Virus record (IMG/VR): IMGVR_UViG_3300028735_000033
Location: 1 to 24,399 of that record
Length of the DNA: 24,399 nucleotides
Reading direction: 5' to 3' (one strand)
Source of the DNA: a virus
Each line of letters begins with the position of its first letter. Within the stretch, counting starts at the first letter, position 1. The translations under genes and the position numbers were made by a program. Positions 21,955-24,399 of this stretch are shown piece by piece. The notes under the pieces were generated by a model. That model worked only from the letters and a program-made list of their open reading frames with translations, did not search any database and was not told the DNA's origin.

Positions 21955-22737
21955 ATGAAAAATGTAAAAATAAAAACATTTGATGCTGACGATTTGTTTA
22001 AATATTATTATAAAAGAATATTAAATGAATCTAAAAAAGAAAAAATTGTCGAAAGAGAGATAGTTCTCAATTTCGATTCTCCTAAAATTAAAAATAAAGA
22101 ATTAGAATTAAAAATAAAAAATGAAGTTCCAAAGAGATGTAAAACAGTTTTATATTATGAAGATGACCCAACTTTACTACCATCATCTTTTCAAATATCA
22201 TATTCTTATTATTTGAATTTTAATTTAGATGAGATTAGAAATGATTTTATTAAAGAAAAAATAGATTTAAAAAAATCTTTTCCAAAAAGCGATGATGATT
22301 TTGATAAAATGATTCAGCAAAAAATACAGAAAAAAGATTCTGAGAATAAAATAGTTAAAAAGAAAGTTATCGATTTCGATTCTTTTTATGTTGAAATACT
22401 TAAAAAGAATTTTCCTAGCTATAAAATAACAGGAAAAATAAACGATTTAGTTGCAAGCAATAAGTTAAATTTAAAAGATTATTCAGTATATTCTTTAGTT
22501 TATTCAACTCAAGTTGATTTTGATTTATTAAATAGACACCTACAAACAGCACTCAAACAAGGAAAGAAAAGCATTTCAATTCCTTTTGGATATGAAGTTG
22601 GATTTGCCTCAAATGATAAAAAACGTGAAAAATCTTTAGAAGAGGTTTTGGAATTTGCAATAGAATTTTCAAAAGCATTCGATAAATATATATTAACAGA
22701 TACTAAATATTATACTATTTCGAAAACAAAACAATGA
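21955..22737 (+). CDS. Unknown 260-residue charged protein
   Basis: A Lys/Asp/Glu-rich protein with CGGAG before ATG 21955. No family is recognised. The N-terminal 75 residues are highly charged. A Tyr-rich stretch (FQISYSYYLNFNLDE, about residues 80-94) is followed by a charged helical segment with repeated Lys-Lys (about 100-140). A C-terminal half contains YSLVYSTQVDFDLLNRHLQ and SISIPFGYEVGFASNDKKR. No catalytic, zinc or membrane feature is seen. The stop overlaps the next start (ATGA), so the two products are probably made together. The gene begins a separate unit after the nucleotide-metabolism genes; whether it is structural or regulatory cannot be told. Confidence 0.55.
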   Translation: MKNVKIKTFDADDLFKYYYKRILNESKKEKIVEREIVLNFDSPKIKNKELELKIKNEVPKRCKTVLYYEDDPTLLPSSFQISYSYYLNFNLDEIRNDFIKEKIDLKKSFPKSDDDFDKMIQQKIQKKDSENKIVKKKVIDFDSFYVEILKKNFPSYKITGKINDLVASNKLNLKDYSVYSLVYSTQVDFDLLNRHLQTALKQGKKSISIPFGYEVGFASNDKKREKSLEEVLEFAIEFSKAFDKYILTDTKYYTISKTKQ

Positions 22738-22994: not shown

Positions 22995-23062
22995 TTATAA
23001 AAAAAGAAAATGTTATTTTTTAACAATAATATAATATAAAAATCATAAAAAAAATATTTTTT

Positions 23063-23071
23063 AATATTTAT
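23063..23071 (+). promoter_or_regulatory. One-mismatch copy of the promoter motif before the TnpB-like gene
   Basis: AATATTTAT, differing from the motif at the first base, lies 26 bases before ATG 23098. It follows an A/T-only palindrome (AAAAAATATTTTTT). The rest of the gap 22995-23097 has a weak 5-bp hairpin at 23011-23025 and nothing else I can name. Confidence 0.25.
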
Positions 23072-23097
23072 AATAAAATAAAGAACTTATTTAAAAA

Positions 23098-24399
23098 ATG
23101 AAAACGATTAAACTTCCATATAAATCATCTGAAGATTTGACGCCTATACTTAAACAATATTCGTCTGTTGTTAGATATAGTTACAATCGATTTCTTGAGG
23201 GTAGTACTGAAAAGGATATCCGTCAATTAACTAAATCACTAAACAATATTGATTTACTTAATTCTTGGTTAATTCAATGCGCTATCAAAGATGCTAAAGC
23301 AATCCATTCTCGATTTAAAAATGAAAAAGTTATATTTGGTGGTAAAATAAATTTTATTAATCGACTTAAAAACAAGATATCAAAACAAGAATATCAACTT
23401 AAAAGATTAGTACCAATTAATATACAAGGTGAAGTACTTAGAAACGGCAATCGTTTATTTAAGTTAGATATAATTGAAAACAACCAAATTATCTTTAAAT
23501 TAAATAGAAACAAATATATAATATTAGAACTACCAAATTTAAGAAATAATATCAAGAAGGAACTATTCAAACTTCAACAACTTAATGAAGTTAAATATAA
23601 ACAAAAGGGCTATACTTATTCAGTTAGATTTGATTTGAATTATATTTATATTTCATTTGAAGAATTTAAAAATGAAAAAGTTAGAAATTTAAATGAAAAC
23701 AGATACTTAGGCATTGATTTAAATCCTGACACAATCGGAATTTCAATTTTAGAAAATGATAGAATTATTCATACCCAAGAATTTAGTTTAAAACAAATAT
23801 TTAATAAAATTTTAAATGAAAAACTAAGTTCGAATTCAAAAAGAATGAAATACTTTCAAAACAAGTTAAAGTTTGAAACGTTTGAAATAAGTAAAACAAT
23901 ATCTAAATTAGCAAAACAATTTAATTGTAAATCAGTTTTCATTGAAGATTTACATTTTAAAGATTCTTCTGATATAAAAATAACAAATCGAAAAAATAAA
24001 AACCTTTGGAAAAAAGAATTATTTATTAATAATTTAACTAAAAGATTAAACATAGAAGGAATTAAACTATACACTGTTAATCCAGCATATAGTAGTTTCA
24101 TAGGTAATTTACAATATGATTATACTGATTCGGTAAATGCATCAATTGAAATAGCACGGCGTGGTTTTGAATGTAAAATAAAGAAAAACAAGGAAGGTTT
24201 TTATCCAAAACTGTTAGTGAAACACCAATGGAAGGAAATGGCCACTAAATATTCAGATTGGAAGAAATTGTTCCTTGAAATAAAAAACTTGAAATTGAAA
24301 TATCGGGTTTCTTTAAATGATGTTAAATATCCATTTAAAGTTTTTCAGCAAAATTCAAGCCATAAAAGCATGGTTTTAAATTATGTTTTTTATGGTAAT
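23098..24399 (+). CDS. TnpB/Cas12-related RuvC nuclease without zinc finger, 3'-truncated by the window
   Basis: ATG 23098 opens a frame that runs without a stop to the last base; 434 residues are visible. It has the TnpB layout: an N-terminal helical and beta region with VVRYSYNRF (about 25-33), then a split RuvC nuclease. RuvC-I is LGIDLNPDTIGISIL with D207, RuvC-II is VFIEDLHF with E283, and RuvC-III is DSVNASIEIARRG with D344. TnpB proteins cut DNA guided by an RNA usually encoded at their 3' end. Odd points: between NPAYSS (328-333) and D344 there is no Cys, so the usual CxxC zinc finger is absent, and 90 residues continue past RuvC-III. No ribosome site precedes the start. Leu CTT and Asn AAC are more frequent than in neighbouring genes, hinting at separate origin. 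No transposase tnpA lies upstream. Confidence 0.82.
   Translation, partial: MKTIKLPYKSSEDLTPILKQYSSVVRYSYNRFLEGSTEKDIRQLTKSLNNIDLLNSWLIQCAIKDAKAIHSRFKNEKVIFGGKINFINRLKNKISKQEYQLKRLVPINIQGEVLRNGNRLFKLDIIENNQIIFKLNRNKYIILELPNLRNNIKKELFKLQQLNEVKYKQKGYTYSVRFDLNYIYISFEEFKNEKVRNLNENRYLGIDLNPDTIGISILENDRIIHTQEFSLKQIFNKILNEKLSSNSKRMKYFQNKLKFETFEISKTISKLAKQFNCKSVFIEDLHFKDSSDIKITNRKNKNLWKKELFINNLTKRLNIEGIKLYTVNPAYSSFIGNLQYDYTDSVNASIEIARRGFECKIKKNKEGFYPKLLVKHQWKEMATKYSDWKKLFLEIKNLKLKYRVSLNDVKYPFKVFQQNSSHKSMVLNYVFYGN

What the first reader, a model, noticed from the sequence alone, without database searches (positions are those of the whole stretch)
23098..24399. Phage TnpB/Cas12-like protein without zinc finger and with an extended C-terminus
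RuvC-I, -II and -III acidic residues are all visible, yet the Cys pairs normally between the NPAY segment and RuvC-III are absent and the chain continues at least 90 residues beyond RuvC-III. No tnpA is nearby. This may be a domesticated or homing-type RNA-guided nuclease, or one that uses another means of target-strand handling. Codon use hints at a separate origin.
Basis: partly seen in the sequence, partly recalled or inferred. Interest (0 to 1): 0.6.

Follow-up and report, generated by a model that had tools for sequence, protein, structure and literature searches.

The report
Zinc-finger-less TnpB of phage IS607 elements
The gene at the window's edge is the RNA-guided DNA-cutting protein (TnpB) of a small jumping element found in large phages; it lacks the usual zinc finger, and its extra tail is largely the protein reading of a conserved, folded guide RNA written into the same DNA, which makes it an unusual but recognisable variant of a known system.

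Summary
ORF 23098-24399 keeps a RuvC triad (D207, E283, D344), has no CxxC, and runs about 80-90 residues past RuvC-III. The protein is essentially complete (close relatives end at 432-437 aa) and no relative has a zinc finger. This is tnpB of an IS607-family insertion sequence: relatives in other phages carry an intact IS607 serine-recombinase tnpA directly upstream; in the window tnpA is deleted and only the left end (23013-23097) remains. Element ends are sharp, and one site is shown empty in related phages, with a single TTA at the junction. The long C-terminus is mostly the coding overlap of a guide-RNA scaffold: synonymous change drops over the last ~50 codons in two independent sets, and a multi-helix RNA covaries across 19 divergent members (41 of 48 pairs with double changes, 0/500 shuffles). 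No Rfam family matches. The inferred guide follows the right end; one guide matches 21 nt after TTA at an empty site in two other phages. Most likely an RNA-guided nuclease that maintains or homes the element; cleavage was not shown. The clade includes ISCaje4 (Campylobacter phage CP220) and Lak megaphage copies. Verdict: new variant of a known kind.

The parts
23013..23097 (+). left end of the IS607-type element; TTA (23013-23015) is the junction/target-motif triplet; tnpA is deleted between here and tnpB
   Evidence: 63-69 identical positions of 74-82 aligned to the left ends of L004-L011; TTA precedes the element at 8 of 8 sites; single TTA at an empty site
23098..24399 (+). tnpB-like gene, 434 aa, running to the contig end (close relatives 432-437 aa; at most a few codons missing)
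23716..23718 (+). codon of RuvC-I aspartate D207 (GIDLNP; lacks the D-hydrophobic-G signature of most TnpBs)
   Evidence: invariant in alignment A4
23944..23946 (+). codon of RuvC-II glutamate E283
   Evidence: invariant in alignment A4
24079..24126 (+). NPAYSSFIGN...YT: place where the C4 zinc finger sits in canonical TnpB; only about 10 residues separate SSF from RuvC-III, no Cys
   Evidence: canonical motif from PMC3627910
24127..24129 (+). codon of RuvC-III aspartate D344
   Evidence: invariant in alignment A4
24163..24399 (+). C-terminal extension (residues 356-434) beyond RuvC-III
24214..24248 (+). 5' helix of the RNA scaffold (TTAGTG pairs with CACTAA)
   Evidence: helix 1 of A2: 5 of 6 pairs with double changes, all cells paired; letters read directly in the window
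24285..24397 (+). inferred omega-RNA scaffold core inside the tnpB reading frame: stem-loop 24285-24310, stem-loop 24311-24340, hairpin about 24360-24396; outer 3' arm and right end lie beyond the contig end
   Evidence: covariance model hit E 7.3e-11; fold z -3.25; covariation in relatives

Best explanation
It is the tnpB gene of an IS607-family insertion sequence living in a tailed phage; in this copy the serine-recombinase gene tnpA has been lost. The protein is a RuvC-type, RNA-guided endonuclease of the TnpB/Cas12f fold without the zinc finger. The 3' end of its own mRNA, which doubles as the coding sequence of the C-terminal extension plus about 29 nt of right end, folds into the guide-RNA scaffold. 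The flanking DNA just past the right end (..TATTTTA|) supplies the guide. The complex cuts the empty allele (TTA target motif plus guide match), so that the element is kept, or copied into element-free phages by repair from the occupied copy. Shown: family, ends, one empty site, conserved RNA structure, triad, natural empty targets matching one guide. Inferred: processing of the RNA, guide length, exact target motif, cleavage, homing.
For: Intact IS607 transposase upstream of relatives (L010: NF033518 173 bits against cut-off 110; L031 73% and L035 40% identical to it). Sharp right boundary with unrelated flanks. Empty site: joined L004 flanks restore an intact coiled-coil tail (RL|TEENNKLKIK*) whose counterpart is present in L091-L095. 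Synonymous O/E in the last 50 codons 0.35 against 0.67 (permutation p<=5e-5), and in an independent set 0.64 against 0.88 (p 4e-3; last 60 codons 0.59, p 2e-4). Covariation: 14 pairs with double changes against 6.0 shuffled in the close set; 41 of 48 against 23.7 in 19 divergent members; both 0/500, and the signal collapses when the helices are slid. The model built from close copies finds the tnpB 3' end in divergent members including ISCaje4 (E 3e-7) and Lak, usually scoring 10-30 bits above a sequence-only model (exception L079). Fold matches to Cas12f and TnpB. Guide of L006/L011 matches 21 nt after TTA at empty sites in L110 and L111.
Against: No experiment. In the window copy the right end and guide lie beyond the contig, and the last codon (GGTAAT against GGTTAA in L008) hints at a small indel, so this copy may not be intact. 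Family scores fall below curated cut-offs. Global TM-scores to solved TnpB/Cas12f are low (0.25-0.3, rmsd about 17 A); the fold call rests on E-values and full-length alignment of a two-lobed protein. The covariation alignment A5 was fitted to the model structure and leans towards it. Of the 21-nt guide match, 19 nt were demanded by the search pattern.
Confidence: 0.85

Rival explanations
1. The conserved 3' structure is a DNA feature (transposase-binding ends or DNA hairpins) rather than a guide RNA, and the protein is an inert passenger or has another role.
For: IS200/IS605 ends form DNA hairpins that would also covary; the structure reaches the element's right end.
Against: The associated transposase is a serine recombinase acting on double-stranded DNA (PMC10711439), not a hairpin-binding HUH enzyme; the structure covers about 150-200 nt inside the coding region, where TnpB guide RNAs lie; the RuvC triad is invariant across the clade.
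Confidence: 0.08
2. A binding-only, regulatory TnpB derivative (TldR-like) domesticated by the phage.
For: Phage-encoded; tnpA lost in the window and in most copies.
Against: All three catalytic residues are invariant in 24 of 24; copies sit at many unrelated sites with flanking-derived guides, as expected of a mobile element.
Confidence: 0.04
3. A type V CRISPR effector that uses a nearby CRISPR array.
For: Fold matches are headed by Cas12f; phage TnpB-like genes near CRISPR-like arrays have been reported (PMC11437467).
Against: No CRISPR-like repeat array around the window, L010 or L004 copies; the guide-RNA scaffold lies in cis at the right end.
Confidence: 0.02

Closest known systems
IS607-family TnpB (ISXfa1, ISFba1; PMC10711439, PMC11061315)
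   Same: IS607 serine-recombinase partner, RuvC D-E-D, guide RNA at the right end, target motif overlapping the recombination core
   Different: no zinc finger; DLNP instead of D-hydrophobic-G at RuvC-I; inferred TTA instead of GGG or AGGAG; about 150-nt scaffold without any Rfam match
ISCaje4 of Campylobacter phage CP220 (PMC2853527)
   Same: same clade: 38% identical protein, scaffold model hit E 3e-7
   Different: tnpA truncated to 80 aa; filed under IS200/IS605 (IS608 subgroup), although its tnpA remnant is a serine recombinase
ISDra2 TnpB (IS200/IS605; PMC10097598)
   Same: TnpB fold; guide RNA overlapping the C-terminal coding region
   Different: zinc finger present (C331, C334, C351, C354); C-terminal domain short, poorly conserved and dispensable; single-strand-acting TnpA
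NCBI 'TnpB-related protein' of Thermus plasmids and unnamed Acetobacter plasmid relatives (22-26% identical)
   Same: the proteins read (L107, L108) have the SSxIG / TSAIG motif without the CxxC pairs and long C-termini
   Different: cellular plasmids, no IS607 tnpA annotated in the flanks examined; guide RNA not tested
Cas12f
   Same: best PDB fold matches
   Different: zinc fingers and CRISPR arrays; none here

Membership tests
TnpB (transposon-associated RNA-guided endonuclease) | RuvC D-E-D triad | tested here: met
   invariant in 24 of 24
TnpB (transposon-associated RNA-guided endonuclease) | C4 zinc finger between RuvC-II and RuvC-III ([TS][TS]xx-C4-RD, PMC3627910) | tested here: not met
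   no CxxC in 24 of 24; later work says only that 'many' TnpBs have it (PMC10711439), so it is not strictly defining
TnpB (transposon-associated RNA-guided endonuclease) | TnpB/Cas12f fold and profile similarity | tested here: met
   Foldseek hits to Cas12f, ISFba1 and ISDra2 TnpB; TIGR01766 and NF040570 significant but below cut-offs
TnpB (transposon-associated RNA-guided endonuclease) | structured guide RNA at the 3' end of tnpB and the right end | tested here: met
   covariation, synonymous constraint, covariance model; the RNA itself was not observed
TnpB (transposon-associated RNA-guided endonuclease) | RNA-guided DNA cleavage | not testable with these tools
   needs biochemistry
IS607 family element | serine-recombinase TnpA next to tnpB | tested here: met
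   met in relatives L010, L031, L035; lost in the window copy
IS607 family element | insertion without target duplication at a short core shared by both ends | tested here: met
   single TTA at the empty site and TTA at both ends
Type V CRISPR-Cas (Cas12) | CRISPR array in cis | tested here: not met
   three loci examined
TldR (nuclease-dead TnpB regulators) | degenerate RuvC triad | tested here: not met

The most novel reading that the evidence does not exclude
A phage-specialised, zinc-finger-less TnpB clade whose tnpA-less members spread between co-infecting large phages as RNA-guided homing elements. Its previously undescribed omega RNA is written almost wholly into an extended, RNA-constrained C-terminal reading frame, and the nuclease works without the zinc-finger module of canonical TnpB.
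Probability: 0.45. Interest if true: 0.65.

Novelty: new variant of a known kind. Interest (0 to 1): 0.52.

Why it matters
Compact TnpBs are the ancestors of Cas12 and candidate genome editors. A naturally zinc-finger-less clade with a distinct scaffold tests whether that module is needed. It also gives a concrete, testable case of RNA-guided homing between phages (element, guide, empty targets in other phages), and it corrects the filing of ISCaje4 and names unannotated Lak-phage genes.

Tried and rejected
Pfam and PHROGs on the protein: nothing. PDB by sequence: nothing meaningful. Neighbour protein 21955-22737: no relatives in viral contigs, so no empty site for the window's own insertion. 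Joined flanks searched in the held phage records: no empty site there; found instead through the interrupted gene's relatives. Guide of L010: only its own contig. Rfam: no match in four relatives at E up to 1, none in the window at gathering threshold. Separate-origin codon signal: not supported. CRISPR array: none. Papers: nothing joining Lak phages with TnpB in the held library; the main TnpB classification paper (PMC10691335) is not held, so prior description of this clade cannot be excluded.

Full report
Observation. The window is a whole IMG/VR virus record, a linear fragment of 24,399 bp. The frame 23098-24399 gives 434 aa and is open at the contig end. D207, E283 and D344 form a RuvC triad that is invariant in all 24 family members aligned; no member has a CxxC pair. 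Close relatives stop at 432-437 aa, so nothing substantial is hidden beyond the end. The contig probably ends here because the element is repeated (inference): one related contig of 129.7 kb holds three copies.

What the gene belongs to. Thirteen close loci were found in IMG/VR and more with a profile. Their flanks show a sharp right boundary: after the stop codon, TTATTTAATTTATTGAATTTTGTATTTTA and then unrelated DNA in each copy. Upstream, L010 has an intact 198-aa transposase that passes the IS607 model (NF033518, 173 bits against a cut-off of 110). L031 (73%) and L035 (40%) also have near full-length tnpA; L008, L009 and CP220 keep 3' parts; L003, L004, L006, L011 and L012 keep only an N-terminal helix-turn-helix piece. 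The window keeps only the left end, 23013-23097, then tnpB. So the window copy is a tnpA-less IS607 derivative.

Insertion site. At eight sites with a readable left end the element is preceded by TTA, and the near-clade right ends close with TTTTA. In L004 the element sits in the last codons of a 593-aa gene. Joining the flanks with one TTA restores ..TEVERL|TEENNKLKIK*, and relatives without the element (L091-L095) have just such a tail. Insertion therefore adds no duplication beyond the shared TTA, as expected for an IS607 recombinase acting on a short core (PMC10711439).

Guide RNA. Synonymous change falls over the last 40-70 codons: O/E 0.35 against 0.67 elsewhere in the close set (permutation p<=5e-5, last 50 codons), and 0.59-0.64 against 0.87-0.88 in an independent divergent set (p from 1e-4 to 9e-3 depending on window). 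Raw amino-acid change in the same stretch is as high as or higher than average while synonymous change is lowest, which points to constraint on RNA. The last 150 nt fold better than shuffles (z -2.3 to -6.0 in six relatives; -3.25 in the window). In the close set 14 of 62 pairs carry double changes (6.0 expected from shuffles; 0/500) and every slide of the helices destroys the signal. A covariance model of nine close copies finds the 3' end of tnpB in divergent members, including ISCaje4, Lak copies and the window. It usually scores 10-30 bits above a sequence-only model; L079 is the exception. On 19 divergent sequences 41 of 48 pairs carry double changes against 23.7 shuffled (this alignment leans towards the structure). 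No Rfam family matches. Most of the 'extended C-terminus' is therefore the reading of the RNA scaffold, although W388 and the KYR motif are also kept at protein level and the model predicts some order there. ISDra2 shows the same kind of overlap on a smaller scale, with a dispensable C-terminal domain (PMC10097598).

Fold. AlphaFold pLDDT 86.7, pTM 0.79. The top PDB matches are Cas12f; ISFba1 TnpB (7e-8), Fanzor2 (4e-7) and ISDra2 TnpB (2e-5) follow. TM-scores are low, probably because the lobes are placed differently, so I rely on E-values and alignment length. NCBIfam gives TIGR01766 (7e-7), TIGR01765 (1.4e-5) and guided_TnpB (1.5e-5), all under cut-off.

Mechanism. By analogy with studied TnpBs, the flank after the right end is the guide and TTA the target motif. 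For L006/L011 the guide TGGCAAAATACGAAGAACCAT, preceded by TTA, occurs intact and without the element in two other phage contigs, at the start of similar genes (19 of the 21 nt were required by the search). These are natural empty targets. Cleavage there, with repair from the occupied genome, would copy the element. This last step is inference.

Distribution. Copies occur in a 462-kb phage (LR756500), Lak megaphages (read with TAG as glutamine), Campylobacter phages including ISCaje4 of CP220, and many environmental phages. Only two short contigs of bacterial bins carry members found by the genome scan. Distant zinc-finger-less relatives sit on Thermus and Acetobacter plasmids.

Standing. Works like TnpB: likely. 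Member of TnpB: yes by triad, fold, IS607 context and guide RNA; it fails the classical zinc-finger criterion, which recent work treats as common rather than universal. I class it as a new variant of a known kind. That phages carry TnpB is known (PMC12607003); prior description of this very clade could not be excluded.

Noticed in passing
L010 3177-5315: DnaB-like helicase gene with an apparent intein inserted at the P-loop (GVGK|AQPLNRK ... THN|TT).
   Followed up: no
L043 just upstream of 3001; L079 upstream of 1552; L036 upstream of 4001: A stand-alone small helix-turn-helix ORF, resembling the N-terminal part of IS607 TnpA, precedes tnpB where the catalytic part is absent; possibly a kept regulator or end-binding protein.
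   Followed up: partly
L042 2735-4371 (CP220 ISCaje4): Filed as IS200/IS605 (IS608 subgroup), but its truncated tnpA aligns with the IS607 serine recombinase.
   Followed up: yes
L006 654-2212 and L011 3260-4818: Two copies share the same right flank but have different left flanks: recombination between copies or a chimeric assembly.
   Followed up: no
window 23004-23015 and L011 3251-3262: The left flanks of the window copy and of L011 share AAGAAAATGTTA; chance in AT-rich DNA or a related target site.
   Followed up: no
L008 4959-5117: Fragment of a different, classical-looking TnpB N-terminus joined to the 3' part of the IS607 tnpA: nested or recombined IS remnants.
   Followed up: no
L079 2901-2957: A second, partial copy of the scaffold's 3' part lies just downstream of tnpB (sequence-only model, 18 bits).
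   Followed up: no
window 22083-22122: Near-perfect 20-nt tandem duplication inside ORF 21955-22737.
   Followed up: no
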